Shown here in pieces: positions 32,743 through 48,102 of a DNA stretch of 64,000 bases. Source of the stretch: Mesonia sp. HuA40. Its GTDB lineage: Bacteria > Bacteroidota > Bacteroidia > Flavobacteriales > Flavobacteriaceae. The notes beneath the pieces are model-generated. The model did not search any database, was not told the DNA's origin, and saw only the letters and a program-made list of their open reading frames with translations. A program made the position numbers and the translations under genes. The DNA lies in assembly GCF_008017835.1 (NCBI RefSeq), contig NZ_VRLT01000032.1, forward strand, positions 1-64,000, written 5' to 3'. Numbering within the stretch: position 1 is the first letter of the stretch; every line of letters starts with the position of its first letter.

Positions 32743-32773
32743 AAAAAAAACCGAGCGAATACTCGGTTTTTTT
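32743..32773. terminator. Terminator of the Cys-rich gene
   Basis: AAAAAAAACCGAG, loop CGAATA, CTCGGTTTTTTT. It lies 18 bases past the stop of the minus-strand small gene and is symmetric, so it can act in both directions. Confidence 0.9.
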
Positions 32774-32790
32774 GTTTTCATTTTATATTC

Positions 32791-33036
32791 TTATGCTGCC
32801 GTATCTGGCGCCCAACTCGAACACAACATACCCTCTGCTGCTTTCTGCGGATGCGCACACGTTGGTCCCTCATATCGTAAACAAGTTAAACAATTTCGCT
32901 CGTTTTGAATTTCTGACTTCATATCAAACTGATCGCAAGTATAATTAGCACTCACTTTTACTTCATGAACTTTACATTGCATCGCATCATTTGCATTTTT
33001 ACAATTAACGCAATTATTTCCCATTCTTATAGCCAT
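32791..33036 (-). CDS. Small protein with duplicated four-cysteine module
   Basis: An 81-residue cytoplasmic protein that I do not recognise by name. Eight cysteines fall in two similar modules: C9-x2-C12-x8-C21-x12-C34 followed by DQF, and C49-x2-C52-x7-C60-x11-C72 followed by SSW. This looks like an internal duplication giving two metal sites, zinc or iron-sulfur. A second ATG (Met 5) is possible. The minus strand has TTG-N20-TATATTTG (33062-33092) just upstream and a strong terminator downstream, so this is a real single-gene unit. Confidence 0.75.
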   Translation of the reverse strand: MAIRMGNNCVNCKNANDAMQCKVHEVKVSANYTCDQFDMKSEIQNERNCLTCLRYEGPTCAHPQKAAEGMLCSSWAPDTAA

Positions 33037-33131: not shown

Positions 33132-34265
33132 TTATTGAGGCAATTGTTCAGGTGCAGGCTCCCTATATATGGTAGAAGACAAACTTAATAGAAATGCTTC
33201 AAGTTGTTCTTGTTCTTTTGTGTTGAGATTTAGCGGCTTTAACAACTCCGATTTCACTGGAAAAAGGCTATCTTTTTGTTGTGCCTTATTCGGTTTTAAA
33301 CTAACCATACCCGCATTATACATATTAATTATACCTTCTAAGTGCGGAAACAAACCATTATGCATGTAGGGGGCGGTATGCGCCAATTCACGTAAAGATG
33401 GTGTTTTGAATTTACCCACATCCTCGGCCTTTTTAGTAATTTGATACCTACCCAAATCTTCATATTTACGGCCGTAGTAAGATAAGCCTAAATCATGAAA
33501 TTGCCCGTCAGAAAATAAGGGAGAATGATGACAATTGATACAACGCGCTTTTGTTCTAAATAAATGTAAACCCTGAACCTCATCATTGCTGAGTTGAGTG
33601 GTGTCACCTGCGATAAAACGATCAAATCTGCTTTTGCGACTCACAATACTTTTCTCGAAAACGACCAGAGCTTCTAATAGTTTCTCACTACTGATTTCAG
33701 ACTCCCCATAAGCCCGCTTAAAATAAGGTGCATAACCAGGTATTTCGCGAATAGATTTAATAGATACTTGCATATGCTGATTCATTTCAATGGGATTCTC
33801 CATGGCTTCCTGTGCTTGTTCCGCCAAGGTTTCAGCTCTTCCATCCCAAAAAAATGAAGAAAAGTAGGCGATATTTAAAATAGACATGGTATTTCTCTCA
33901 CCAGTTGCCCGATTATGACCGTGGGCCACCCGTTTTCCATCGGCCCAACCCAAATCGGGATCGTGACAAGAAGCACAAGCTATTTGTTTACTTCCCGAAA
34001 GCCTAGGATCATGGAAAAGCAATTTACCCAATTGCCTTTTAGCTTTGTAAAGTGAATCATCCTCGGCTATGGATAATGGTGGAAGACTTCCGATTTCTTG
34101 AAAATCTTTTACACTAGCGTCTACAAGGGCATCAGGCCATTGCGTGAAATCTCCGCTGCCATAGCGTGTTTTTAATTCGATAACACTATAAGAATCTGAT
34201 TTCGATTGCTTGTTTTGACATCCAAAGCATGCAATCAATAGTATAATATATAAAATTCTTTTCAT
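33132..34265 (-). CDS. Di-haem cytochrome c peroxidase / MauG-like lipoprotein
   Basis: A 377-residue lipoprotein (lipobox LIACFGC, Cys 16) of the bacterial di-haem peroxidase family. There are two haem c sites, C97-A-S-C100-H101 and C242-I-N-C245-H246, with RNTMSILNIAYFSSFFWDGR between them and TPSLRELAHTAPYMHNG near the end. Family members reduce hydrogen peroxide, or like MauG/MbnH oxidise a partner protein. The open frame extends to 34328, but the added part overlaps the upstream gene; the ATG at 34265 gives a proper signal. It is the last gene of a four-gene operon, 4 bases after the DUF6850 gene. Confidence 0.92.
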   Translation of the reverse strand: MKRILYIILLIACFGCQNKQSKSDSYSVIELKTRYGSGDFTQWPDALVDASVKDFQEIGSLPPLSIAEDDSLYKAKRQLGKLLFHDPRLSGSKQIACASCHDPDLGWADGKRVAHGHNRATGERNTMSILNIAYFSSFFWDGRAETLAEQAQEAMENPIEMNQHMQVSIKSIREIPGYAPYFKRAYGESEISSEKLLEALVVFEKSIVSRKSRFDRFIAGDTTQLSNDEVQGLHLFRTKARCINCHHSPLFSDGQFHDLGLSYYGRKYEDLGRYQITKKAEDVGKFKTPSLRELAHTAPYMHNGLFPHLEGIINMYNAGMVSLKPNKAQQKDSLFPVKSELLKPLNLNTKEQEQLEAFLLSLSSTIYREPAPEQLPQ

Positions 34266-34269
34266 CGCA

Positions 34270-35832
34270 TTAATAGGATAAGGTGATGCAAAATCCAACA
34301 AAGGAATTGATTTTATTATTCGCATCAAAATTTAAATATTCATCGGCTGGGTGGAGTGCCGTTTCTAGTGCGTACTGCAGACGCAATCTTAAACTTCTTT
34401 CGTTATCAATAGATCGAGTGTAGGCCGCAGTTAACCCGGTTAACAACCTATTGGTTCCTTCATAAGCATGATCGGGAAACACAACATCATCTATAAAAGT
34501 TGTATTTTCTGTTACTTGCTGCCAGTCCAATTTTTGTTGTAAAGCGTGAGAATACAAACTTTGTAAAGCAACAAATAAATTATGATTGTTTTTCTGATAT
34601 AGCGTACGACCTATTTCGATTTCTGTTACTAAAGTTTGTATTTCTTTATGCGTATAGCCCAACAGGTCAATATATTCTCCTACAAACAAATTCATATTAG
34701 CTTGGGTTTGCCACAAAATACGCTTCTGCTCTTCTCTCAAAAGCTTTAAATTTAAACCGATTTGTTCTTCGGTTAACCTAAAATTTTGCCCCCCAGCTTG
34801 TTCAATATAATTATCCCCTTGGGTATGTTTATAATGTAAACCCCAAGAAGCATCCAGTTTATTACCCTCATAATCTGTTTGAATGCGCAATTCTTGTTTT
34901 TCTTTACGATAGGCGTGACTAACTAAATTTTCATCATAATAAATCTGATTATTGGCATCAGCTGCATAGAGTTTGCTCACACCAGTATGATAAGTATAAG
35001 CGCCAGAAAGCACCCAATTAGTGGCTGAATATTGGTAGGCGAAACCCCAAGTTTTGGGTATTTCTCTTCGTAAATGTTTGAAATAAGAGTCATTAAAAGT
35101 CACCAAGCCATAACCCGAAGTAAATTGGGTGAAAGTATCGGGATATGCGGGCGAGTTTAATGCATCATCTACATAAAGCGATTGGTGGTTTTCGGTTCTT
35201 CGTCCTATCCCTGCTTGTGCTGCAATTTTATGCTTTCCTTGAGTGTAACCTAGGTGGGCATTCGCTTTGTAAAAGGCAGCGGTAATTTCGGGTCTAGGGT
35301 CTTGCAAACGGTAGGCCTGTTGATTCTCATAGGCTACATTCAAAGCAAAAGACCAATTTTTGCTTAACAAGTAACTTGCTCCTCCTGCTATTTGGTAGAA
35401 TTGACTTTCCCAATCGGCTTTTTTGGGCGCAAAGAAATAATGCGGATCTAACACAGGCCGGTTGGTACTGCGCTCTAAACCCAAAGTATAGCCTAAATCT
35501 TTTTCAAAACTTTTGGTAAATAAAAATTTGCCGTACAACCTCAACCGTGAATTAATAGCATATAAACCTCTTGTATTAAAACTCCATTCGGTGTTTTTTG
35601 AAGGAGTTTGCACCCGTTTGAGTTGGCGTTTTTCTTGCACAAAAGCTACACTGCTTTGTGTAAAGTTTTTAAAACGGTACTTGCTATACAAAAGAGGTTG
35701 CTCCAACAGATTTTGCAAGTTGTTTTTATGGTAGGTGTTTTGACTTAAATCTATACTATCTTTAAGCTGTGCCCAACTTAAATTTGCCCAAAACGCCAAC
35801 AGAAAAATAATACAACCTCTTTTGATTAGCAT
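34270..35832 (-). CDS. DUF6850-like outer-membrane barrel protein
   Basis: A 520-residue exported protein resembling DUF6850. The signal peptide is about 1-21 (ending NLSWAQ). The body is rich in alternating aromatic/polar strands with Tyr/Asn turns, and it ends VGFCITLSY, consistent with a large outer-membrane barrel without a plug domain. The function is unknown. It lies 10 bases after the DUF4876 gene and 4 bases before the peroxidase gene, so it is part of the TonB-receptor operon. Assignment to the DUF is from memory of the family pattern. Confidence 0.78.
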   Translation of the reverse strand: MLIKRGCIIFLLAFWANLSWAQLKDSIDLSQNTYHKNNLQNLLEQPLLYSKYRFKNFTQSSVAFVQEKRQLKRVQTPSKNTEWSFNTRGLYAINSRLRLYGKFLFTKSFEKDLGYTLGLERSTNRPVLDPHYFFAPKKADWESQFYQIAGGASYLLSKNWSFALNVAYENQQAYRLQDPRPEITAAFYKANAHLGYTQGKHKIAAQAGIGRRTENHQSLYVDDALNSPAYPDTFTQFTSGYGLVTFNDSYFKHLRREIPKTWGFAYQYSATNWVLSGAYTYHTGVSKLYAADANNQIYYDENLVSHAYRKEKQELRIQTDYEGNKLDASWGLHYKHTQGDNYIEQAGGQNFRLTEEQIGLNLKLLREEQKRILWQTQANMNLFVGEYIDLLGYTHKEIQTLVTEIEIGRTLYQKNNHNLFVALQSLYSHALQQKLDWQQVTENTTFIDDVVFPDHAYEGTNRLLTGLTAAYTRSIDNERSLRLRLQYALETALHPADEYLNFDANNKINSFVGFCITLSY

Positions 35833-35842
35833 AGTTTATTAT

Positions 35843-37198
35843 TTAAAATCCTTTAGGGATAGCCTTATTCATCACTTTAAAATCAAGTGCCGAGTTGTTG
35901 CTGTCTTCTAAAATTACACGACCATTAACGGTAGTTTTAGTTTTACGCATAACACTTTGTGAGTTATATATACCGTCTACGCTTATCGCGGAAGCATCTA
36001 CCGTAGGAGGCAACATTTTTGGACGTTGAGACGAAGGGTTATAGTGCTGCAAATCTACTCCGTCAATTAACTGAGCCACGGGTATTTGCAGATAAAAATT
36101 AGTGTTATCTTCAATTTGAACCACAGAGGGATCACTATAATTAGCATACGCAGCAAAATCTTGGTCGTCTGCTCTAAAAATGGCAAAACTATCTCTCCCA
36201 AAACTATCTAATACAAAGTCTTTATTATTGCTAAAATAATTTTCTCTTCCCCAGAATGCTAAATTTACATCTTGCACTGCCGGGTTTTGAATATCCCACT
36301 GGTAAGGCTGCTCACCAATGGCTACTCTAAAGTCTCCTAAATATACCTCAAATTCTGCCGAGCTTAAATCTACCGTAAGCGATGGATCACCAATTTCTAT
36401 AGGATCACCATTATTGTCTACTAAAGGCTGTTTATGATTTAAGGCATTTTGAGCAATTACGAAGCTTTCTCCTGGTTGTAAGGGGTAATCGGTTCCTGTA
36501 CCAGGTATTTGCAATACATAATCTGCATACACGTAATCTGTGTTAGCTTTAATGCCCATGCTCATACCTATAGATTGACTCCAATCAAATTGACCAGTTG
36601 GTAGGGTGTAGGCTGCACTATTGGTTTTTGATCGCCCATATAATTGCGCAACATATAAACCGTCTGCATAAATTACTTCGTTAGAATTGTTATAAATTTC
36701 GATAAATTGATCTCTAAAAAGCGCTCCATTTTTGGTGTCTGAACCGGCGTAGTATATTTGCTTGACTACTAAATCTCCTATTCTAGCGGCGTCTAAAGTT
36801 AAATTAACCGAAAGTGTATTGGCGTTCACAACAACATTTTCTTGACTGGCATTAAATATAACCTCATTGCCGCTTGGAGCGTAACCAAAATTTTGCTCGA
36901 AAGCTTGCGCATCAAGCGTTAAACTAGCCGATACATTATAAGTACCAGGTAGTACCGCTTCAAAGCTAGCTAAACCGTTACTGCCCGATGTGGCTTTATA
37001 TGCATCTCCTGTATTGGTATTGGTTAGAACTACCTCTCCTTGGTTTACAGGTTCTCCGTTAAAACGTTGATCGTCGTAATTTAAATAAACCGAAAAACTT
37101 TGGGTTTGTAGTCCGCTTCCTCCAAAATCATCATCATTTGAGCAAGCACTTAAGCCTAATAGCACTAAAAGTGCAAAACCGAATTGAATTAATCTCAT
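35843..37198 (-). CDS. DUF4876 lipoprotein
   Basis: A 451-residue lipoprotein with lipobox LLGLSAC (Cys about 19) and an acidic SNDDDFGG spacer, which suggests surface display in Bacteroidota. Residues about 35-125 form a carboxypeptidase-regulatory-like beta-sandwich. The rest matches DUF4876, beginning DLVVKQIYYAGSDTKNGALF and continuing with FIEIYNNSNEVIYADGLY, which resembles a lamin-tail fold. Few tryptophans are present (for example QFDWSQS, PYQWDIQ and LAFWGREN). It is gene two of the operon, 27 bases after the TonB receptor, and is probably its surface-exposed partner. Confidence 0.85.
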   Translation of the reverse strand: MRLIQFGFALLVLLGLSACSNDDDFGGSGLQTQSFSVYLNYDDQRFNGEPVNQGEVVLTNTNTGDAYKATSGSNGLASFEAVLPGTYNVSASLTLDAQAFEQNFGYAPSGNEVIFNASQENVVVNANTLSVNLTLDAARIGDLVVKQIYYAGSDTKNGALFRDQFIEIYNNSNEVIYADGLYVAQLYGRSKTNSAAYTLPTGQFDWSQSIGMSMGIKANTDYVYADYVLQIPGTGTDYPLQPGESFVIAQNALNHKQPLVDNNGDPIEIGDPSLTVDLSSAEFEVYLGDFRVAIGEQPYQWDIQNPAVQDVNLAFWGRENYFSNNKDFVLDSFGRDSFAIFRADDQDFAAYANYSDPSVVQIEDNTNFYLQIPVAQLIDGVDLQHYNPSSQRPKMLPPTVDASAISVDGIYNSQSVMRKTKTTVNGRVILEDSNNSALDFKVMNKAIPKGF

Positions 37199-37225
37199 TG
37201 TTATTGATTTTATATTTGTTATTGT

Positions 37226-39949
37226 TTAAAATTGATATTCTATTTTAGTTCCAAATGAAAGCTGTACTACATCTGGATTGGTACGCTTCACCAATTGACC
37301 ATTTTCTATCACCAGCCGGGTTGGTTTTAGATCTAAGAAATTATTTACATAAAAACTAAAACGAAATCCGTTAAGGAAATCTTTAGAAATACGCAAATGG
37401 TAGTTGTGATATACCTCGGTTTGCGGCTGAACATAACCTGCGTCTGGTTTTATAATGTCACCAAATAAATTGGTATTGTTTTGTTCATTTGGTGCTATAC
37501 TTACTTTATTTAACCAACTATCAATATAGGCATACGGGTAGAGCGACGCTCCTCGCTGATAATTATCAATTATTATATGTTCTGACCGAACGTTGATTAG
37601 CAAACCTATTTGTGGAATATGATAACTTAGGTTCCCTCCTAAATTAAGTTTCTCTCGGTTTACAATTCCACGTTTATATAACCCAAATTGAATCGGCGTA
37701 GATGCATCTGAAGATTTTACAAATCGGTCATTACCAGGAAAGTCTTGTGTGCGCACATAACTGGCTTGCAAACCAAAAGTTAACTGCTTAAACACCAAAG
37801 ACGGAAAATTTAGAAATGTTTCTACCCCATAGTCTTCTGACTCAAAAACATTAGCGATTTGTGACTCAGTATAGTAATAGGGCCTATAACCTGTGATTTG
37901 CAATTCTGGGTTTTGCAAGTCGCTATCATCAATAGCTACTTCGGCTAAATCACGACGAACGGCGTACGACTGACTGGAGATTCCTTGAAAAAGTTTGTTA
38001 TAAAAAGCGGTAATATTTAGCGTAGCAAATCCAAATTTATAATCGGCGCCTAACTCCGTTCTTAAACTACGCGAGGGTTTTACATTGGGGTTATCTTCGC
38101 GCTCTACAAAAGTTTGAATGGCACCAATATTATACACACCAGGATACCTAAAATCGGCTAAGACCACATCATAATACCTGTAACCGGTATAAATCTGATT
38201 CAGCGAAGGAGCTTTGGCTGTAAGACCAAAGCCAGCTCTTAATTTTACTTTGTTAAAAATCAAAGCCGAATTTACCCGTGGAGATAGACTTAAATATTCA
38301 TTTTGTAGATTGGCTCGCAATCCCGCCGTGATTCGCAACGTTTTATTGGTATAAAAACGAGTGAAATCATCTTCTAAAAAAAAAGAAATTTGTGATTCGG
38401 CTTGAACTTGATCGGCATAATTATACGGTCTAAAAGCTGAAGAGCCAGAACCGGTCTGATTGGTAAACTGACTGATACTGGTTTTTGGTGAACCCAATCG
38501 ACCTGCTCCTAAATTATCGCTTAATCGGTAATTAAAACCAGCCGAAAGATTATGGGTACTGTTTAAATTGCTAATAGACTTATAAACCAAACCTGCAGCA
38601 TAAAACGATAACGGCTTACCCTCTACCTCTTTAACAGAAGTATAGCGTGGTGCGGTATAAACACCTTCATATACCCCTTCGCGTGTTCCAAAACCAACCA
38701 ATTTACCTCCGTTATTTACCGCTTTACTTTCAAAACTATACTGCGAAGAAAAATTAAAATTAACATTGAAATCAAAATAATCTAGAAAAGCTTTAGGCTT
38801 AAAATGGTAGCTAAACCTATTGGTTAAGCGCCAATCTTTTTGCTCGTTCTTTACTTTCTTTTCATTGCGCTCCTCCTTGTCATAATTTACATCATCTAAA
38901 TGAAACCCATATTGCAAGCTAAGCGAATTTTTGATGTTTTTCTCTTTATTGGCCCAACTCCACATCACTTGGCTATTCACTCTTCTATAATTGGTATAAG
39001 CTTCACGCGGATTTGCTTGTGCATCTAAGAAACTAGTCGAAACATTTAAGAAGCCTAATCTGCCAGGAAGCGTCAATCCTTTATTTATTCCATATTCTGT
39101 AGTACCTTCTCGCAAAGAAGCGTAGGCCAAATAAGGCGAACGCCCAGCTTTTTGATCAATTTTAATTAAACCCGAAGTAAGATCGCCATATTTAACCGAA
39201 GGAATCCCTTGTACCACTTCAATTTTTTCTATGTTCTGTGTAGCTATTTGCCTAAGATCTACTCCAAAATTAGCATTCGAAAAGGTGCCGTTAAATCTGG
39301 TTCCTGCACGGTTATCACCAAAGCCTAGATAATTAGCCGCAAAAGGAGAAGCCATATTGGCAGTATAACTCTGCATATTCTCATTATTGCTCAGGGGTAT
39401 ATCATCAACCACCACAGCAGTTCCAAAAGATTTATTGCCAAAACCATCATCTGAAACCGTATTGGGTCGCACCGTCCTAAAGGCAATAGGCTTAAATTCG
39501 TTTAAACTAAAATTGCTGATTTGCTGTCCTGGTAGCTGTTCTAAAACTTCATTAAGCGAGAAAGCTTGCACTTGATTTATGGCTTCCTCTTCAAAAAGAA
39601 CCTCAGAAAAAGTATGGCCTTTGGTAGCTTTTACCACCACCTCATCTAAGCGCAAATTTTCATCGGTAAGAAAAATTTTGATGTCTTTTAGGCTGTTTTT
39701 AGTATTAAACCATCGAGTAACCGTCTTTTTTCCTAATAATTGAAATTGCAATTCTACCTTTTCTAATTCACCCACCCCAATACTAAAATTTCCTTTTTCA
39801 TCGGTGAGCACCCAAGTATTAGTGGTTAAATTGATAACGTTTACATAAGGTAACTTCTCCAAGGTTTTAGCATCTTGCACAACACCTCTTAGTCTTTGTT
39901 GCGCTAAAATACTAATCGGTAAGAAAAAACACATTATTAATAACCGCAA
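37226..39949 (-). CDS. TonB-dependent outer-membrane receptor
   Basis: A 907-residue TonB-dependent receptor. The signal peptide is about 1-16 (ending SILAQ). A carboxypeptidase-D-regulatory-like domain follows (about 18-100, LRGVVQDAKTLEKLPYVNVIN). The plug domain is about 115-270, with LDEVVVKATKG at its start and EKIEVVQGIPSVKYGDLTSG at its end. The barrel fills the rest and ends in KIEYQF. The substrate is unknown. There is no SusD partner, so it is not a typical glycan system; metal, haem or siderophore uptake is more likely. A TAGCTTTG box on the minus strand (39976-39983) and a 14-base palindrome lie upstream. Confidence 0.93.
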   Translation of the reverse strand: MRLLIMCFFLPISILAQQRLRGVVQDAKTLEKLPYVNVINLTTNTWVLTDEKGNFSIGVGELEKVELQFQLLGKKTVTRWFNTKNSLKDIKIFLTDENLRLDEVVVKATKGHTFSEVLFEEEAINQVQAFSLNEVLEQLPGQQISNFSLNEFKPIAFRTVRPNTVSDDGFGNKSFGTAVVVDDIPLSNNENMQSYTANMASPFAANYLGFGDNRAGTRFNGTFSNANFGVDLRQIATQNIEKIEVVQGIPSVKYGDLTSGLIKIDQKAGRSPYLAYASLREGTTEYGINKGLTLPGRLGFLNVSTSFLDAQANPREAYTNYRRVNSQVMWSWANKEKNIKNSLSLQYGFHLDDVNYDKEERNEKKVKNEQKDWRLTNRFSYHFKPKAFLDYFDFNVNFNFSSQYSFESKAVNNGGKLVGFGTREGVYEGVYTAPRYTSVKEVEGKPLSFYAAGLVYKSISNLNSTHNLSAGFNYRLSDNLGAGRLGSPKTSISQFTNQTGSGSSAFRPYNYADQVQAESQISFFLEDDFTRFYTNKTLRITAGLRANLQNEYLSLSPRVNSALIFNKVKLRAGFGLTAKAPSLNQIYTGYRYYDVVLADFRYPGVYNIGAIQTFVEREDNPNVKPSRSLRTELGADYKFGFATLNITAFYNKLFQGISSQSYAVRRDLAEVAIDDSDLQNPELQITGYRPYYYTESQIANVFESEDYGVETFLNFPSLVFKQLTFGLQASYVRTQDFPGNDRFVKSSDASTPIQFGLYKRGIVNREKLNLGGNLSYHIPQIGLLINVRSEHIIIDNYQRGASLYPYAYIDSWLNKVSIAPNEQNNTNLFGDIIKPDAGYVQPQTEVYHNYHLRISKDFLNGFRFSFYVNNFLDLKPTRLVIENGQLVKRTNPDVVQLSFGTKIEYQF

Positions 39950-40038
39950 GCCTGTAAATTTTACGTTTCTGGATGCAAAGCTAATTATTTATTTTTATTT
40001 AGATTTAAATTAAATAAGAAAATATGATTCAATATCAA

Positions 40039-40218: not shown

Positions 40219-41121
40219 ATGGAATATGTAAAAAACCAATTTAACATTAAAGATCTCGAGGCCCTTAGCGGAGTTAAGGCACATACCATAAGGATCTGGG
40301 AAAAAAGATACCACATTTTAAAGCCCGAACGTACCGATACCAACATAAGGGTTTACGACACTAAGGCCCTACAGCGCTTGTTGAATATTGCCTTCTTAAA
40401 TGAAAATGGATATAAAATATCTAGAATTTCAAAACTGGATTGCGCTGAGATTGATAAGCTTACCCATGAAATTAGGACGGCCAATAATGCAGAGAATAGA
40501 GCCATAAAAGCTTTTTTTGTATCGATGTATAATTTTGATCAAAGCTTATTCCTTAACACCTACAATACACTACTTGAAAAAATGACTTTTCAAGAAATTT
40601 TTGAAGAAGTGTTTGTTCCAATGCTAAAGCAAATAGGTGATTTATGGCAAACTAATACGGTAAAACCAGCGCACGAGCATTTTATCTCGCATCTTATTAG
40701 ACAAAAACTTTTTAGCAGTATCGAAAAATTGCAAATCGAGCCTGAATTTAATAAAGAAAAAGTCTTTATCTTATTCTTGCCCAATAATGAAATACATGAT
40801 ATTGGCCTGCTTTATCTACAGTATTCCTTGCTTAGCTTAGGTTATAAAGTAGTATATTTAGGTCACTCTATTCCATTAGAAGACTTGACCAGTTTTACAA
40901 GTCAAAATAAATCGGTCTATTTCGTCAGTGTTTTTACCATAAAACCTGAAAGCCCAGAAGCGTATCTAAAAGAATTTTATGATAAAATTTTGGCAAATGA
41001 AGATTCAGATCGTTATCAATTAGCCTTACTGGGTTTAAAAACCAAAGAATTAAATTTAGAAGATTTACCACCACAAATAAACATTTACGAAAACCCAACT
41101 AAACTTATACGCTCCATTTAA
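40219..41121 (+). CDS. MerR-family regulator with B12-binding domain (CarH-like)
   Basis: A 300-residue transcription regulator. The MerR DNA-binding domain covers residues 6-75 (FNIKDLEALSGVKAHTIRIW, then the wing NIRVYD). A helical bundle (about 90-175) carries W143-x9-E153-H154, the signature that cradles the upper face of adenosylcobalamin in CarH photoreceptors. The Rossmann-like B12 domain follows, with E191-x-H193-x2-G196 in place of the usual DxHxxG. The axial His is kept and Asp is replaced by Glu. Its last base overlaps the crtI ATG (TAATG). It probably represses the carotenoid genes in the dark and releases them in light. Confidence 0.9.
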   Translation: MEYVKNQFNIKDLEALSGVKAHTIRIWEKRYHILKPERTDTNIRVYDTKALQRLLNIAFLNENGYKISRISKLDCAEIDKLTHEIRTANNAENRAIKAFFVSMYNFDQSLFLNTYNTLLEKMTFQEIFEEVFVPMLKQIGDLWQTNTVKPAHEHFISHLIRQKLFSSIEKLQIEPEFNKEKVFILFLPNNEIHDIGLLYLQYSLLSLGYKVVYLGHSIPLEDLTSFTSQNKSVYFVSVFTIKPESPEAYLKEFYDKILANEDSDRYQLALLGLKTKELNLEDLPPQINIYENPTKLIRSI

Positions 41122-42584
41122 TGAAGAAAAATATATCTATTATAGGATCAGGATTTGCCGGTTTGTCCGCAGCATGTTATTTAGCTAAAGCCGGACACAA
41201 GGTGAAGGTTTATGAAAAAAATGAAAGCATTGGTGGCAGGGCACGTCAATACAAAAAAGACGGTTTTACATTTGATATGGGACCAACATGGTACTGGATG
41301 CCTGATGTATTCGAGCGTTTTTTTGCTGATTTCGATAAACAACCCAGCGATTATTATGAGTTGATTAAACTAAGTCCGGCTTACAGTATTTATTTTGATC
41401 AAAATGAACGTATGATTATAGGGGATACACTCGATAAAATTTATGCAGAATTTGAACGTATAGAACCTGGAAGCTCCAAAAGTCTAGCTAAATTTGTTGA
41501 AGCAGCTCGTGATAATTACAGCATTGCAATCAAAGATTTGGTTTATAGACCAGGAATTTCACCTCTAGAATTAATCACTCCAGAAACAACCCTAAAGATA
41601 GGGCAATTTTTTAGCACTATTGCCCAAAAGGTGCGTAAACGATTTAAAAATCCGCAATTGATTCAGGCGTTAGAATTCCCAGTTTTATTCCTAGGAGCCA
41701 AGCCAAGTGACACCCCGGCTTTTTACAATTTTATGAATTATGCCGATCTAGGTCTAGGTACTTGGCACCCTAAAGGCGGAATGTTTGAAGTAATAAGAGG
41801 AATCGCCCAATTAGCTCAAGATTTAGGGGTTAGCATTCATACCCAGTCGAATATCAGTGAGATTAAGGTAAATAAAAAAGCTCAGGTAGAGGGACTAATA
41901 TGCAATGAAAAGTTTATTCCATCAGACGTTGTTTTGAGTGGTGCCGATTATCATCACACCGAAAGCCTTCTCGATTTAAACTATCGCCAATACAGCGAAA
42001 AGTATTGGTCTAAAAAAACCTTTGCTCCCTCGTCCCTGCTCTTTTATGTAGGCTTCGATAAAAAATTAAAGAACGTAGATCATCATACCTTGTTTTTTGA
42101 CGTAGATTTTAAAGCTCACGCTTACAGTATTTACGATAAGCCTAGTTGGCCAGAAGAACCGCTGTTTTATGCTAGTTTCCCTTCCAAAACCGATAAGGTG
42201 GCTGCTCCCGATGGTCAAGAAGCAGGTATTTTCTTAATTCCACTGGCACCGGGAATTGAGGACAATGAACAACTACGCGAATCTTATTTTGACAAAATTT
42301 TAAGTAGATTTGAAAAAATAACTCAACAAAAAGTTAAAAAAAATATTATATTTAAAAAAAGTTATTGCGTGAATGATTTTGTAAACGATTACAATTCCTA
42401 TAAAGGGAACGCTTATGGGTTAGCCAATACTTTGCTGCAAACAGCATTTTTAAGGCCAAAACTTAAAAGTAGAAAAGTTAACGGACTTTATTTTACAGGA
42501 CAACTAACCGTTCCCGGTCCAGGGGTGCCGCCCTCCTTAATATCAGGTAAATTAAGCGCAGAACTTATCGATAAAAAAAATTAA
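41121..42584 (+). CDS. crtI: Phytoene desaturase CrtI
   Basis: A 487-residue FAD-dependent phytoene desaturase, converting colourless phytoene to lycopene by four desaturations at the membrane surface. The N-terminal dinucleotide fold is ISIIGSGFAGLSAACYLAKAGH. The region FDMGPTWYWMPDVFERFF is typical of the bacterial CrtI group. The C-terminal signature is GLYFTGQLTVPGPGVPPSLISG. Length is normal. Translation is coupled to the upstream regulator by a one-base overlap, and crtB starts 1 base after the stop. Confidence 0.96.
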   Translation: MKKNISIIGSGFAGLSAACYLAKAGHKVKVYEKNESIGGRARQYKKDGFTFDMGPTWYWMPDVFERFFADFDKQPSDYYELIKLSPAYSIYFDQNERMIIGDTLDKIYAEFERIEPGSSKSLAKFVEAARDNYSIAIKDLVYRPGISPLELITPETTLKIGQFFSTIAQKVRKRFKNPQLIQALEFPVLFLGAKPSDTPAFYNFMNYADLGLGTWHPKGGMFEVIRGIAQLAQDLGVSIHTQSNISEIKVNKKAQVEGLICNEKFIPSDVVLSGADYHHTESLLDLNYRQYSEKYWSKKTFAPSSLLFYVGFDKKLKNVDHHTLFFDVDFKAHAYSIYDKPSWPEEPLFYASFPSKTDKVAAPDGQEAGIFLIPLAPGIEDNEQLRESYFDKILSRFEKITQQKVKKNIIFKKSYCVNDFVNDYNSYKGNAYGLANTLLQTAFLRPKLKSRKVNGLYFTGQLTVPGPGVPPSLISGKLSAELIDKKN

Positions 42585-42585
42585 C

Positions 42586-43425
42586 ATGAAAGCATTATTC
42601 GATCTGGTTTCACATAAATGCAGTAAAGCTGTAACCGAGAGCTATAGCACCTCATTTTCTATGGCCACGAAATTACTGGCACCAAGTATTCGCCAAGATA
42701 TTTATAATATTTACGGATTTGTTCGCTTTGCTGATGAAATCGTAGATTCTTTTCACGACTATGACAAAGCCTTTTTATTTGAGCGTTTTGAAAAAGATTT
42801 GCAAGATGCACTTGAACATAAAATCAGTTTAAATCCTATACTTAATGCTTTTCAAGAAACCGTAAATCGCTATAATATTCAGCCCGAGCTGTACCAAGCT
42901 TTTATGCGAAGTATGAAAATGGATCTCACTAAAAAACAATACCATACACATCAAGAGTACCTAGATTACATTTACGGCAGCGCAGATGTGGTGGGTTTAA
43001 TGTGTTTAAAAGTTTTTGTAAAAGGCGACGAAAAAAAATACAATCAACTCAAAGATGATGCGATGCGTTTGGGCTCAGCTTTTCAAAAGGTAAACTTTTT
43101 AAGAGACCTAAAAGCCGATCACGAAGACCTCAATCGTACTTATTTTCCAGGAACTAATCTTAATGAGTTAGACGAAACGAGTAAACAAAAAATAATTCAA
43201 GAAATCGAAACCGATTTTGCCAACGGCTTACGCGGAATTGCAAAGCTTCCCGTCGAAGCTAAATTGGGCGTATACACCGCTTATATTTATTACTCGAAAC
43301 TATTAAGTAAATTAAAAAATACACCATCTTTGCAAATCAAGGAAAAACGAATTCGTGTTTCTAATTATCAAAAATTTGGCTTAATGGCGCAATGTTATGT
43401 GTCTTACCGATTAAAATTAATTTAA
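42586..43425 (+). CDS. crtB: Phytoene synthase CrtB
   Basis: A 279-residue squalene/phytoene synthase, joining two geranylgeranyl diphosphates into phytoene. The two Asp-rich motifs are visible as VRFADEIVD (DxxxD) and FLRDLKADHED, with STSFSMATKLL near the N-terminus. The GGPP synthase (crtE) that supplies the substrate is not in this window. It lies between crtI and crtZ with 1- and 2-base gaps, so the operon is very tight. Confidence 0.95.
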   Translation: MKALFDLVSHKCSKAVTESYSTSFSMATKLLAPSIRQDIYNIYGFVRFADEIVDSFHDYDKAFLFERFEKDLQDALEHKISLNPILNAFQETVNRYNIQPELYQAFMRSMKMDLTKKQYHTHQEYLDYIYGSADVVGLMCLKVFVKGDEKKYNQLKDDAMRLGSAFQKVNFLRDLKADHEDLNRTYFPGTNLNELDETSKQKIIQEIETDFANGLRGIAKLPVEAKLGVYTAYIYYSKLLSKLKNTPSLQIKEKRIRVSNYQKFGLMAQCYVSYRLKLI

Positions 43426-43427
43426 CT

Positions 43428-43877
43428 ATGCAAGTATTTTATTGGATATTAGTATTTCTGGCTACATTTTTCTTTATGGAGTTTATGGCTTGGTTTACAC
43501 ATAAATATATTATGCACGGCTTTTTATGGAGTCTTCATAAAGATCACCATCAAAAAGATCACAGCCACTGGTGGGAACGCAACGATTTATTCTTTATTTT
43601 TTATGCTTTGGTTAGTATAGGTTGTTTCCTTTTGTGGCGATATGAGGACATATGGTTTGCACTGCCCATCGGTTTAGGTATTTTTGCCTATGGCCTAGCC
43701 TATTTTACCGTACACGATATTTTTATACATCAGCGTTTCAAAATGTTTCGCAATGCCAATAATTGGTATGCCAGAGGAATAAGACGTGCACATAAAATAC
43801 ATCATAAACACTTAGGTAAAGAAAAAGGCGAGAACTTTGGTATGCTTATCGTGCCTTTCAAATATTTTAAAAAGTAA
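43428..43877 (+). CDS. crtZ: Beta-carotene hydroxylase CrtZ
   Basis: A 149-residue non-haem di-iron hydroxylase with four membrane segments, adding 3-hydroxyl groups to beta-carotene to make zeaxanthin. The iron-binding His clusters are HKYIMH, HKDHHQ, HDIFIH and HKIHHKH. The open frame starts at 43392, inside crtB. The ATG at 43428, 2 bases after the crtB stop, gives the normal N-terminus MQVFYWILVFLATFF. No crtW ketolase is present in the cluster, so zeaxanthin rather than astaxanthin is the expected product here. Confidence 0.94.
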   Translation: MQVFYWILVFLATFFFMEFMAWFTHKYIMHGFLWSLHKDHHQKDHSHWWERNDLFFIFYALVSIGCFLLWRYEDIWFALPIGLGIFAYGLAYFTVHDIFIHQRFKMFRNANNWYARGIRRAHKIHHKHLGKEKGENFGMLIVPFKYFKK

Positions 43878-43901
43878 ACACCTTTAAGGCTTCAAAGGCT
43901 T

Positions 43902-45047
43902 ATGCTTAATACCGGCTTTCATTATACAATTGTTGGTGCGGGATGCGCAGGACTCCAGTTGGCTATGGCTTTGGCCGAAAAAACCCAAGCAACAAATAAA
44001 AAAATAGCCTTAATCGATAAGCGTAGGCCCAGTAAAAACGATAAAACCTGGTCGTTTTGGGAGGCTGGTGCAGGGAAATGGGATAGCATTCTATCTTCTT
44101 CTTATTCATATGCTTTTTTTAAAGCGCCAAATACAGAGTTAAAGCTTAAACTGAATCCGTATACCTATAAAAGCCTTAAGGCTGCAGATTTTTATACTTA
44201 CTCATTCGAGAAGTTAAAGGCCTACGCTCACGTAATTTTTATAGAGGAAGAAGTTGTTAGAATTCAAGAAAACAGAAAGGAAGCAATTGTCACCACCGCT
44301 TTGGGTAGTTATCGTTGCAGCCATGTATTTGATAGTAGAATTCCAGCGGCTTTCTATAACCAAAACCGCTACCTAAAAATTCAGCAGCATTTTAAAGGAA
44401 TAAGAGTTAAAACAAAAAATCCTGTTTTTAACACCCAAGCTTTTACAATGATGGACTATCGCTTTTCTTATCCTGATAGTACTAGCTTTATGTATGTATT
44501 GCCTTATAGCCCAAATGAAGCTTTAATCGAATTTACCTTCTTTAGTCCGTTTACGGTAAAAGAAAGTGTTTATGATCAATACAATAAAAACTACCTTAAA
44601 AATTATTTAAACACAACAGATTTTGAAATTCTAGAAACCGAAACGGGCAATATTCCAATGAGTAATTACCCTTTTCATAAACACCACACCAACCGCATCA
44701 CCAAAATCGGCACCGGAGGGGGTTGGGTGAAACCCTCTAGTGGTTATTCTTTTAAAAATACCGAAAAAAAAGTCAAACAAATAATCAAAAACATCGAGGA
44801 AGATAGACTTACTTCTTATGGTCTTTACAGTAAAAAATATAACTTTTACGATACTATATTTCTAAAGGTTTTACAGGATAACAACCATTTGGGACCTTGG
44901 CTATTCACAAAGTTTTATTCAAAAAACTCTGTACCCACAATGTTTCGATTTTTAGATGAAGAAAGTCGATTTAAAGAGGAGTTTAAAATTATGCGAAGTC
45001 TTTTTAGCTGGGCATTCATCAAAGCTTTTTTTCAAACTCGTTTTTGA
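43902..45047 (+). CDS. crtY: Lycopene beta-cyclase CrtY
   Basis: A 381-residue lycopene cyclase, closing both ends of lycopene into beta-rings. The FAD-binding motif is YTIVGAGCAGLQLAMAL, followed by the lycopene-cyclase segments KTWSFWEAG and later GTGGGWVKPSSGYSF. Length is normal. It is the last gene of the carotenoid operon, 24 bases after crtZ. Its stop codon is directly followed by the stop of the convergent thioredoxin-like gene, with no intergenic base and no hairpin terminator between them. Confidence 0.93.
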   Translation: MLNTGFHYTIVGAGCAGLQLAMALAEKTQATNKKIALIDKRRPSKNDKTWSFWEAGAGKWDSILSSSYSYAFFKAPNTELKLKLNPYTYKSLKAADFYTYSFEKLKAYAHVIFIEEEVVRIQENRKEAIVTTALGSYRCSHVFDSRIPAAFYNQNRYLKIQQHFKGIRVKTKNPVFNTQAFTMMDYRFSYPDSTSFMYVLPYSPNEALIEFTFFSPFTVKESVYDQYNKNYLKNYLNTTDFEILETETGNIPMSNYPFHKHHTNRITKIGTGGGWVKPSSGYSFKNTEKKVKQIIKNIEEDRLTSYGLYSKKYNFYDTIFLKVLQDNNHLGPWLFTKFYSKNSVPTMFRFLDEESRFKEEFKIMRSLFSWAFIKAFFQTRF

Positions 45048-45698: not shown

Positions 45699-47963
45699 TT
45701 AAGCATTCATCTTTTTAATCAAGTTAAGCGCAGAACCTTCTTTATACCATTCGATTTGATTCTCGTTGTAAGTATGATTTGCTTTAATCACATCTTTAGA
45801 ACCATCGGCGTGTACCACTTCAATGGTTAACGGCTTGCCTGGTGCAAACGATTCTAAATCTATAAAGTTAAAAGTATCATCTTCCTGAATTAAATCATAA
45901 TCGGTTTCATTGGCAAAAGTGATTCCTAACATACCTTGTTTTTTCAAGTTGGTTTCGTGAATACGAGCAAAAGATTTTACCAATACTACATATACACCAA
46001 GATGTCTAGGCTCCATTGCTGCGTGTTCACGTGAAGAACCCTCACCGTAGTTATGGTCTCCTACTACAACGGTAGGAATACCTGCAGCTTTGTATTCACG
46101 TTGAGTATCGGGAACACCACCATACTCACCCGTTAATTGACTTTTAACAAAGTTCGTTTTCATGTTAAAGGCATTCACAGCACCAATCAAACAGTTGTTT
46201 GAGATGTTATCAAGATGCCCTCTAAAACGCAACCAAGGTCCGGCCATAGAGATGTGGTCTGTAGTACACTTCCCGTGTGCTTTAATTAACAATTTAGCAC
46301 CGGTGATATTTTTGCCATCCCAAGGCTCAAATGGTGTTAACAATTGTAAACGCTCAGATGTTGGCGATACTTTAACTTCTACCGAGCTACCGTCTTTACG
46401 AGGTGCCACATAACCAGGGTCTTCTACATCAAATCCTTTAGGAGGAAGCTCTAAACCTTTTGGCTCTTCTAGCATCACTTCTTCTCCATTTTCATTGATT
46501 AATTTATCGCGGGTAGGGTCAAAATCTAATCTTCCAGAAATTGCAATGGCCGCTACCATTTCTGGCGAACCTACAAATGCGTGGGTATTAGGGTTTCCAT
46601 CGGCACGTTTTGAGAAGTTACGGTTAAACGAGTGCACAATGGTATTTTTCTCTTCGCCTTTACGGTCGCTTCTATCCCACTGTCCAATACAAGGTCCGCA
46701 AGCATTGGTAAAGATGGTTGCATCTAAATCTTCAAAAATTTGAAGCAATCCATCGCGCTCGGCCGTATAACGAATTTGCTCTGATCCTGGGTTGATTCCA
46801 AAATCTGATTTTGCTTTTATGTTTTTATCTACCGCTTGTTTAGCAATCGAAGCGGCTCGAGTAAGATCTTCATAAGAAGAGTTGGTACAAGAACCGATAA
46901 GACCCCAATCTACTTGAATAGGCCAACCATTCTTTTGTGCTTTCTCGCTCATTTCTGAGATAGGAGTGGCTAAATCTGGAGTAAATGGCCCGTTTAAATG
47001 CGGCTTAAGCGTTGACAAATCAATCTCGATAACTTCATCAAAGTATTGCTCTGGGTTCGCGTAAACTTCGTCATCTCCCGTCAAGTACTCACGTACTTCA
47101 TTCGCAGCATCGGCCACGTCATCACGATTGGTCGCGCGTAAGAAACGCTCCATAGAGTCATCATAACCAAAGGTCGAAGTAGTTGCTCCCACTTCGGCTC
47201 CCATATTACAAATGGTTCCTTTTCCTGTACAAGACATCGCCTTAGCTCCTGGACCAAAATATTCTATAATCGCACCAGTACCTCCTTTTACGGTTAATAT
47301 ACCGGCTACTTTTAAAATTACATCTTTAGAGGCCGTCCATCCGTTTAATTCACCGGTTAACTTCACCCCGATTAATTTAGGGAATTTCAACTCCCAAGGC
47401 ATTCCCGCCATTACATCAACAGCATCTGCACCTCCAACACCAATAGCTACCATTCCTAGTCCACCAGCATTTACCGTGTGTGAATCGGTACCAATCATCA
47501 TTCCACCAGGAAAAGCATAATTCTCTAATACCACTTGGTGTATAATACCAGCTCCTGGTTTCCAGAAACCTATACCGTATTTATTTGAAACCGACTCTAA
47601 GAAATCAAAAACCTCATTACTGGTTTCATTGGCACGTTTTAAATCTTTTGCTGCTCCCTGTTTAGCTTGAATTAAGTGATCACAGTGCACCGTAGTAGGC
47701 ACCTCTACCTTCTTTTTACCCGCTTGCATAAACTGCAATAAAGCCATTTGTGCCGTTGCATCTTGACAAGCAATACGGTCTGGCGCAAAGTTTACATAAT
47801 CGGTTGCTCGCTTATAAGCCGTTGTAGGCTCTCCATCCCAAAGATGGGCGTAAAGTATTTTTTCTGAAAGCGTTAAGGGTTTACCCACAATCTCACGCGC
47901 TTTGTCTACACGCTCTGCGATTTGGTTGTAAACCTTTTTAATCATATCAATATCGTATGCCAT
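45699..47963 (-). CDS. Aconitate hydratase
   Basis: A 754-residue aconitase of the mitochondrial-like type, which interconverts citrate and isocitrate in the TCA cycle through a [4Fe-4S] cluster. Motifs include [25 protein letters not shown], the cluster Cys in [14 protein letters not shown] and [13 protein letters not shown], and the swivelling C-terminal domain with [17 protein letters not shown]. Length matches ACO2-type enzymes (about 750), not AcnA of E. coli (about 890). It is monocistronic. Confidence 0.96.
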
Positions 47964-48067: not shown

Positions 48068-48102
48068 AAAACCTTACTTAAAACGAGTCTAAATAAGGTT
48101 TT
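48068..48102 (-). terminator. Possible terminator after moxR
   Basis: AAAACCTTA (48068-48076) pairs with TAAGGTTTT (48094-48102) over a 17-base loop. It lies about 100 bases past the moxR stop. On the minus strand the sequence after the stem is T-rich but interrupted. Confidence 0.5.

What the first reader, a model, noticed from the sequence alone, without database searches (positions are those of the whole stretch)
33132..39949. Four-gene TonB receptor / DUF4876 / DUF6850 / di-haem peroxidase operon, a candidate undescribed uptake or protein-oxidation system
Seen: gaps of only 27, 10 and 4 bases join a TonB receptor without SusD, an acidic-spacer lipoprotein (DUF4876), a second barrel (DUF6850) and a lipoprotein with two CxxCH haem sites. 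Known: MauG and MbnH, of the same di-haem family, oxidise a partner protein, and MbnH/MbnP pairs occur with TonB receptors in copper uptake. Inference: the peroxidase-like lipoprotein may modify DUF4876, which would then bind a metal or ligand for import by the receptor.
Basis: partly seen in the sequence, partly recalled or inferred. Interest (0 to 1): 0.75.

Follow-up and report, generated by a model that had tools for sequence, protein, structure and literature searches.

The report
Iron-regulated uptake operon with MauG-type peroxidase
This is a four-gene operon, found in many Bacteroidota, that very probably imports iron in some bound form and carries its own two-haem peroxidase; the uptake core was already known to respond to iron, but the peroxidase-bearing version looks undescribed and its job is open.

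Summary
The four genes, gaps and domains are as described. TonB receptor, DUF4876 lipoprotein and DUF6850 barrel form a near-obligate trio: 46 of 46 fetched DUF4876 neighbourhoods. The di-haem peroxidase closes a widespread subset: 52 of the 80 closest relatives kept carry all four genes in order. Of 7 peroxidases of this clade standing apart, 6 lie in genomes with DUF4876, against 12 of 395 genomes of the class.

An iron-type Fur box precedes the operon. The motif, found de novo, matches the EMSA-tested Riemerella Fur box: 41 of 61 operons, shuffles 0.84, other genes 26 of 752. Published transcriptomes of two species show receptor/DUF4876 loci induced by iron depletion. So metal uptake is right, most likely iron.

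That the peroxidase oxidises DUF4876 is not supported. The candidate Trp marks one clade, nine peroxidase-bearing operons lack it (one inferred across a contig break), and 63 of 69 enzymes lack a recognised lipobox. I favour a periplasmic role on imported cargo, like FusC protease or the peroxidases reported beside FusA-type receptors. Direct tests are missing.

The parts
39996..40016 (-). Fur-box-like operator TATTTAATTTAAATCTAAATA, 47 bases upstream of the receptor ORF
   Evidence: 2 mismatches to TATTTAGAN5TCTAAATA; one of 10 places within 2 mismatches in the 2.64-Mb genome; motif found de novo upstream of related operons and matching the EMSA-tested Riemerella box
39976..39983 (-). TAGCTTTG, resembling the flavobacterial -7 element (consensus recalled, not from a call)
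   Evidence: sequence; inference only
37226..39934 (-). TonB-dependent receptor with carboxypeptidase-regulatory-like N-terminal domain, plug and barrel (ORF open to 39949)
   Evidence: PF13715, PF07715, PF00593
35843..37198 (-). DUF4876 lipoprotein, 451 aa; Cys19 followed by SNDDDF (export-signal-like, recalled); solved homologue BT_1938
   Evidence: PF16215, weak LTD match; AF2 pLDDT 93.8; PDB 4q1z by fold and by profile, E 3.8e-82
36581..36583 (-). codon of DUF4876 Trp206 (loop GQFDWSQS), invariant in one clade only
34270..35832 (-). DUF6850 protein, 520 aa, predicted outer-membrane beta barrel
   Evidence: PF21012 8.3e-70; AF2 pLDDT 91.3, long beta strands; Foldseek matches to TBDT, FadL and AlgE barrels with low TM-scores
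33132..34265 (-). MauG-family di-haem peroxidase, 377 aa, with a lipobox here
   Evidence: PF03150 5.1e-53; Tyr316 at the MauG/MbnH position
33963..33977 (-). haem site 1, CASCH, residues 97-101
33528..33542 (-). haem site 2, CINCH, residues 242-246
33318..33320 (-). codon of Tyr316, aligned with Met258 of the CCP 1iqc; invariant in 65 of 65 peroxidases of the Trp206 clade
32744..32773 (.). hairpin followed by T, possible end of the transcript, beyond the 81-aa ORF 32791-33036
   Evidence: listed on the + strand; T run also seen on the - strand; the number of such sites in the region is no higher than in shuffles

Best explanation
It is a Fur-controlled TonB-dependent uptake operon for iron in some bound form. 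The receptor imports the cargo (inferred from family). The DUF4876 lipoprotein sits on the cell surface as ligand-binding partner of the receptor, in the place SusD, BtuG or XusB take elsewhere (inferred from lipobox, acidic signal and gene order). DUF6850 is a second outer-membrane barrel of unknown role in the same unit (barrel predicted; role unknown). The peroxidase works on the periplasmic side, most likely on the imported cargo: it changes the redox state of, or oxidatively breaks, the iron carrier so that iron or haem is released, the job that FusC protease does in the Fus system. Shown by computation: gene content, operon conservation, iron-type operator match, MauG-type Tyr, genome-wide linkage of peroxidase and core. 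Inferred: iron as the cargo metal, locations in the envelope, enzyme action.
For: Trio: DUF6850 found in 9 of 9 family genomes with DUF4876 and 27 of 29 phylum genomes by Pfam (the other two have weak DUF6850-like ORFs); receptor directly upstream in 46 of 46 neighbourhoods. Peroxidase: 52 of 80 kept relatives have all four genes, 54 of 80 have DUF4876 and DUF6850 upstream. Iron: de novo motif and Fur box; PG1019-22, BT1933-39 and BT3625-33 induced by iron depletion. Cargo-side role: 40 of 44 operons without Trp206 have no adjacent peroxidase (39 after the L086 correction), so the core can do without it; M16 peptidase or HEAT-repeat genes lie within 3 kb downstream of DUF6850 in 10 of 44 operons without and 0 of 69 with an adjacent peroxidase (seeds included, related rows not independent); PMC6793856 reports cytochrome c peroxidases beside FusA-type receptors that lack the M16 protease (passages); 63 of 69 enzymes lack a recognised lipobox; a nested clade of the enzyme sits in SusC/SusD-type loci.
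Against: No substrate is known and I found no experiment on the four-gene form. The window box is 2 mismatches off, and at up to 3 mismatches the genome holds more control than true matches (114 against 66). Among operons counted as peroxidase-free only 4 of 33 have the box (one of the four, L086, in fact very probably has the enzyme); many of these are from other classes. The 61 operons are not independent (near-identical boxes within genera). In operons fetched later 7 of 11 with and 3 of 12 without adjacent enzyme have a box within 2 mismatches. Only 1 of 10 peroxidases standing apart has one (L310), and 3 of 11 SusC/SusD-type loci. Another MauG-like gene, Fjoh_2477 beside PhoX in F. johnsoniae, is induced by phosphate starvation. 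Locations rest on N-termini. The commonest extra gene near that slot is YCF48-like, not a peptidase, so a common cargo-processing slot is a loose reading.
Confidence: 0.5

Rival explanations
1. The peroxidase oxidises a residue of DUF4876, for example Trp206 to kynurenine, making a metal site as in MopE/CorA or MbnP.
For: MauG/MbnH-type Tyr316 invariant; Trp206 in 43 of 46 peroxidase-adjacent and 3 of 34 other DUF4876 as labelled, invariant 69 of 69 in its clade; MopE/CorA precedent with a co-transcribed di-haem peroxidase (passages).
Against: One change on the tree, so one event; receptor Trp330 shows the same clade pattern (66 of 67 against 8 of 42); Trp206 absent from L097, L099, L116, L305, L353, L354, L356, L357 with the enzyme adjacent and from L086 by inference; no cleanly separating residue in the short form (a weak test); one invariant His (H255) against two in the CorA site.
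Confidence: 0.12
2. The peroxidase is an ordinary hydrogen-peroxide scavenger that protects the cell while iron is taken up.
For: Same Pfam family as CCP; PG_1019 and PG_1020 also change in a PG_0686 study on oxidative stress (one passage); iron import raises Fenton risk (established knowledge).
Against: Tyr in place of the CCP Met; linkage to one transporter family.
Confidence: 0.2
3. The enzyme oxidises or reduces iron itself, in the manner of EfeB or of thiol-oxidoreductase/imelysin iron loci.
For: Iron-type operator; BT2473-2482 combines a thiol oxidoreductase and peptidase M75 under iron control (passage); EfeB analogy recalled.
Against: No imelysin or inner-membrane iron permease among the four genes; no direct data.
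Confidence: 0.15
4. The operon imports something other than iron (for instance peptides or phosphorus compounds) and the box is a coincidence.
For: F. johnsoniae MauG-like Fjoh_2477 is phosphate-regulated, though the operon in the F. johnsoniae record L170 has different neighbours in the ORFs listed.
Against: 41 of 61 operons with the box against 0.84 in shuffles; induction of receptor/DUF4876 loci by iron depletion in two species.
Confidence: 0.08

Closest known systems
Iron-responsive TBDT/DUF4876 loci PG1019-22 (P. gingivalis), BT1933-39 and BT3625-33 (B. thetaiotaomicron), PMC10434189 (passages)
   Same: receptor plus DUF4876 protein, induced by iron depletion; BT_1938 is the solved DUF4876 structure 4q1z
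   Different: no peroxidase named in the passages seen; other accessory genes (HEAT, PepSY, ABC, DUF4857); no function assigned there
MbnP/MbnH and MopE-SACCP / CorA-CorB
   Same: MauG-like di-haem enzyme encoded with a partner protein; MopE and CorA are metal-regulated
   Different: partner not related in the alignment made here (MbnP), copper rather than iron, Trp to kynurenine; no general target residue found here
MauG
   Same: family PF03150 and Tyr at the axial position
   Different: 37% identity to a plasmid-borne MauG; no methylamine dehydrogenase genes beside it; half of the equivalog cut-off score
Fus system (FusA receptor with FusC M16 protease; relatives with cytochrome c peroxidase), PMC6793856 (passages)
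   Same: iron-related TBDT with a processing enzyme that can be M16 protease or di-haem peroxidase
   Different: DUF4876 lipoprotein and second barrel present here; receptor kinship to FusA not tested
XusABC, BtuBG, SusCD type receptor/lipoprotein pairs
   Same: TBDT with a lipoprotein partner
   Different: lipoprotein family is DUF4876, and a second barrel and a peroxidase are added

Membership tests
MauG (TTQ biosynthesis) | score over TIGR03791 equivalog cut-off (443.85) | tested here: not met
   222.8 bits
MauG (TTQ biosynthesis) | beside mauA/mauB genes | tested here: not met
   window neighbours against the mau cluster of L132
MauG-like group within PF03150 | Tyr at the axial position of the C-terminal haem instead of Met | tested here: met
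   Tyr316 aligned with Tyr of MauG L132 and MbnH L133 and with Met258 of 1iqc; that this residue is the ligand is recalled
Classical bacterial CCP | axial Met | tested here: not met
   Tyr316 in 65 of 65 peroxidases of the Trp206 clade and 11 of 11
MbnP/MbnH pair | enzyme over TIGR04039 cut-off (362.85) | tested here: not met
   212.5 bits
MbnP/MbnH pair | partner related to MbnP | tested here: not met
   17% identity to the MbnP of L133 in a multiple alignment; no profile comparison made
MopE/CorA kynurenine copper proteins | Trp plus two His forming the site | tested here: not met
   one invariant His, Trp206 in one clade only
MopE/CorA kynurenine copper proteins | Trp oxidised to kynurenine | not testable with these tools
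   needs mass spectrometry
DUF4876 receptor loci of Bacteroidota | PF16215 lipoprotein directly after a TBDT | tested here: met
DUF4876 receptor loci of Bacteroidota | control by iron | tested here: inconclusive
   Fur-box match only; expression not measured
SusCD systems | SusD-family lipoprotein | tested here: not met
   no SusD Pfam match among the four proteins
Fus protein-import systems | FusA-type receptor with M16 protease FusC | not tested
   no M16 match among the four proteins; receptor not compared with FusA

The most novel reading that the evidence does not exclude
A family of outer-membrane iron importers in which a MauG-type di-haem enzyme, not a protease or reductase, is the cargo-opening step: it oxidatively dismantles an imported iron carrier (haem protein, siderophore or iron protein) in the periplasm, and has been recruited separately by DUF4876 systems and by SusC/SusD systems.
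Probability: 0.3. Interest if true: 0.8.

Novelty: new variant of a known kind. Interest (0 to 1): 0.55.

Why it matters
Receptor/DUF4876 loci are among the more strongly iron-responsive loci reported for gut and oral Bacteroidota, yet I found no account of what they import. The peroxidase-bearing version in genetically tractable flavobacteria offers a direct way in: a redox enzyme tied by operon and by genome to one transporter narrows what the cargo can be. If the enzyme opens an imported iron carrier, it would be a new way of releasing iron and a new use of the MauG family.

Tried and rejected
Trp206 as the oxidation target: strong at first sight, then weakened by the tree, receptor Trp330 and peroxidase-bearing operons without it. 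My first reading that the enzymes of four genomes act in trans on Trp206 operons was partly wrong: in G057 the gene is very probably the fourth gene of a second operon split by a contig break (24-base overlap), and in G633 one copy belongs to a second operon. Trans cases that remain: G121, G369, G1022, G1023, G1028; G121 and G369 had been picked because they hold DUF4876. L086 was therefore wrongly counted as peroxidase-free; the numbers quoted from those calls are as computed, uncorrected.

Copper (MbnP-like) reading: 17% identity only. Phosphate reading: Fjoh_2477 lies next to PhoX, while the ORFs listed around the F. johnsoniae operon L170 are others (no family scan of them). DUF6850 fold search gave low-TM barrel matches. 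Calling the ~740-aa HEAT-repeat protein a C25 peptidase was my guess by eye; Pfam shows HEAT repeats only. Gene names hemA, aconitase and others at the ten genome sites are by eye, without family scan.

The lipobox pattern misses true cases (it missed DUF4876 of L097). In one search the nine 'with enzyme' proteins come from eight loci, one being a second, non-adjacent copy, and three of the ten 'without' loci lie in genomes that hold the enzyme elsewhere.
Full report
WHAT IS THERE. The four minus-strand genes stand as described. The receptor probably starts at ATG 39934 rather than TTG 39949. Gaps are 27, 10 and 4 bases. The peroxidase falls in PF03150, well below the MauG and MbnH equivalog cut-offs. 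AlphaFold2 models made from alignments of window and locus sequences are confident: DUF6850 looks like a beta barrel and DUF4876 is mostly beta; the solved relative of DUF4876 is BT_1938, PDB 4q1z.

HOW CONSERVED. With Pfam families I searched 120 and 397 genomes of the family, 395 of the class and 296 of the phylum for DUF4876: present in 9 of 120, 14 of 397, 12 of 395 and 29 of 296. DUF6850, searched in the 120 and the 296, accompanies it in 9 of 9 and 27 of 29 genomes by Pfam; the other two, G128 and G154, carry a weak DUF6850-like ORF by my own profile. DUF6850 matches in genomes without DUF4876 were weak, at most about 31 bits (for example G017, G195, G309, which still pass the cut-off). 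In 46 of 46 fetched DUF4876 neighbourhoods the receptor lies directly upstream (in L102 split in two ORFs), and DUF6850 follows, in L122 and L127 after three inserted genes. The peroxidase follows in 10 of those 46, in L111 after one small ORF (11 with L086 after the contig-break finding).

NAMED RELATIVES. 52 of 80 have receptor, DUF4876, DUF6850 and peroxidase in order; two more (Psychroflexus) have DUF4876 and DUF6850 at a contig edge or with an insertion; one has a DUF6850 remnant. The 52 include Flavobacterium, Gillisia, Aquimarina, Capnocytophaga, Chryseobacterium, Empedobacter, Pedobacter, Mucilaginibacter, Filimonas, Rufibacter and Fulvivirga. The set is chosen by likeness to operon peroxidases, so it shows breadth, not a rate. 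Twelve others share a pattern of gene sizes that in L190, the one scanned, is FecR, SusC-type receptor, SusD and a lipoprotein without Pfam match, then the same peroxidase.

THE ENZYME BELONGS TO THE SYSTEM. In 295 class genomes the scores fall from 468 to 298 bits with nothing between; 7 of 295 genomes hold this clade, 4 of them with DUF4876, and the other three (G140, G144, G131) group with the SusC/SusD type and have none. In the tree, operon enzymes, unlinked ones, the SusC/SusD type and six loci outside Bacteroidota form one group (SH-aLRT 99) apart from MauG, MbnH and the common paralogues; the SusC/SusD type is nested within (97) (quick method, no bootstrap). Of the 80 loci, seven Bacteroidota peroxidases stand apart from both arrangements: L141, L142, L161 (with a DUF6850 remnant), L167, L177, L182, L205. 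Six of these seven genomes hold DUF4876 elsewhere; that of L182 does not. L310 (G121) and L311 (G369) also stand apart, but those genomes were picked for DUF4876. In G1024, G1025 and G1026 the extra enzyme accompanies complete operons; in G121, G369, G1022, G1023 and G1028 the operons fetched lack an adjacent enzyme. Genomes of the SusC/SusD type hold DUF4876 in 5 of 11 searched, and the six loci outside Bacteroidota in 0 of 6.

IRON. An unbiased count of short words upstream of 58 receptors gave TATTTAGA in 41 (2.5 expected) and TCTAAATAA in 37 (1.3 expected). These are the two halves of ATTTAGAATTATTCTAAAT, the Fur box of Riemerella anatipestifer; promoters holding it were tested by gel shift (PMC5609570, passages). 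Within 2 mismatches of its arms it lies upstream of 41 of 61 peroxidase-type operons (shuffles mean 0.84, at most 5), 4 of 33 others and 26 of 752 control genes. Rows from one genus often share one box, so they are not independent. Among operons fetched later it is 7 of 11 with and 3 of 12 without an adjacent enzyme; among peroxidases standing apart 1 of 10 (L310, 1 mismatch); among SusC/SusD-type loci 3 of 11. The window has it 47 bases before the receptor ORF. Of the ten places within 2 mismatches in the window genome, others lie near a hemA-like gene and an AraC-type regulator, an aconitase-like gene, and another TonB receptor with two boxes (named by eye), but some lie in or near genes without a known iron role, and at 3 mismatches the reversed control pattern matches more often (114 against 66). 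PMC10434189 (passages) reports receptor/DUF4876 loci induced by iron depletion: PG1019-22 by 20.8 to 214.5 fold, BT3625-33 by 36.7 to 128 fold, BT1933-39 by 3.5 to 7.4 fold; for Prevotella intermedia I saw only the locus named in a figure legend. PMC10470040 and PMC10101095 (one passage each) list DUF4876 genes among genes that respond to haemin or change in a regulator mutant study.

DOES THE ENZYME MODIFY DUF4876? For it: Tyr316 sits where MauG and MbnH have Tyr and the CCP 1iqc has Met, and MopE/CorA give a precedent (PMC3912023, passages). I compared DUF4876 with and without an adjacent enzyme. Trp206 stood out: 43 of 46 against 3 of 34, 69 of 69 within its clade. But on the receptor tree it changes once, receptor Trp330 behaves alike, and operons with the enzyme but without Trp206 are L097, L099, L116, L305, L353, L354, L356, L357 and, by inference, L086. 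Within the short form no residue of the kinds W, Y, C, M, H cleanly separates nine proteins labelled with the enzyme from 13 without; one of the nine is a second copy, and three of the ten loci without lie in genomes with the enzyme elsewhere, so this test is weak. Only 6 of 69 enzymes have a recognisable lipobox, whereas DUF4876 has the lipid Cys in 46 of 46 and 33 of 34 and an acidic stretch after a recognised lipobox in 40 of 70, the kind that sends Bacteroidota lipoproteins to the surface (recalled). If so, the two would meet only in transit.

WHAT I THINK IT DOES. The trio takes up an iron-bearing cargo. The peroxidase is an optional periplasmic enzyme for that cargo. M16 peptidase or HEAT-repeat genes lie within 3 kb downstream of DUF6850 in 10 of 44 operons without and 0 of 69 with an adjacent peroxidase; a YCF48-like gene is commoner still there. 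PMC6793856 (passages) reports that FusA-type receptors come with M16 protease FusC or, in multiple cases where it is absent, with a cytochrome c peroxidase, and proposes release of an iron cofactor by redox change. I put about 0.8 on iron uptake and about 0.4 on cargo-side action given iron uptake (judgement).

NOVELTY. DUF4876 appears in 3 papers and DUF6850 in none of the held open-access library. Searches for PG1019/PG1020, for MauG with Bacteroidetes and TonB, and for peroxidase with TonB receptors in Flavobacterium, Elizabethkingia and Capnocytophaga gave listings (none) in which I saw no description of the four-gene operon. Subscription papers are not covered. PMC9331221 held none of my terms; PMC8115612, PMC9478572, PMC7221216 and PMC3621798 were seen in passages.

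Noticed in passing
window 40219-45047: Divergent from the operon lies a MerR/B12-binding regulator (CarH-like, below the NCBIfam cut-off) followed by what looks by eye like a carotenoid gene set; possibly light- or B12-controlled pigment genes.
   Followed up: no
window 32791-33036: An 81-aa Cys-rich ORF, co-directional, 95 bases after the peroxidase, no Pfam match; a short ORF also follows the operon in the sister genome (L088).
   Followed up: partly
window 48075-48095: A Fur-box-like site (2 mismatches) upstream of the aconitase-like gene at 45699-47963.
   Followed up: partly
L190:3566-11134 and loci of like gene sizes (L181, L187-L189, L191, L192, L194, L195, L202, L209, L211): The same peroxidase clade closes FecR/SusC/SusD/lipoprotein loci (families scanned in L190 only); the lipoproteins scanned in L190, L188 and L211 have no Pfam match.
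   Followed up: partly
L122, L124, L127, L128, L095, L098: DUF4876 loci with three shared genes that look by eye like an ABC transporter set, recalling BT3625-27 of PMC10434189.
   Followed up: partly
L137:7091-10000: In Psychroflexus halocasei the DUF6850 gene is split by an inserted ORF on the other strand.
   Followed up: no
L312:7059-7661: In genome G094 the match to this peroxidase is only a fragment (200 aa), perhaps a remnant after loss.
   Followed up: no
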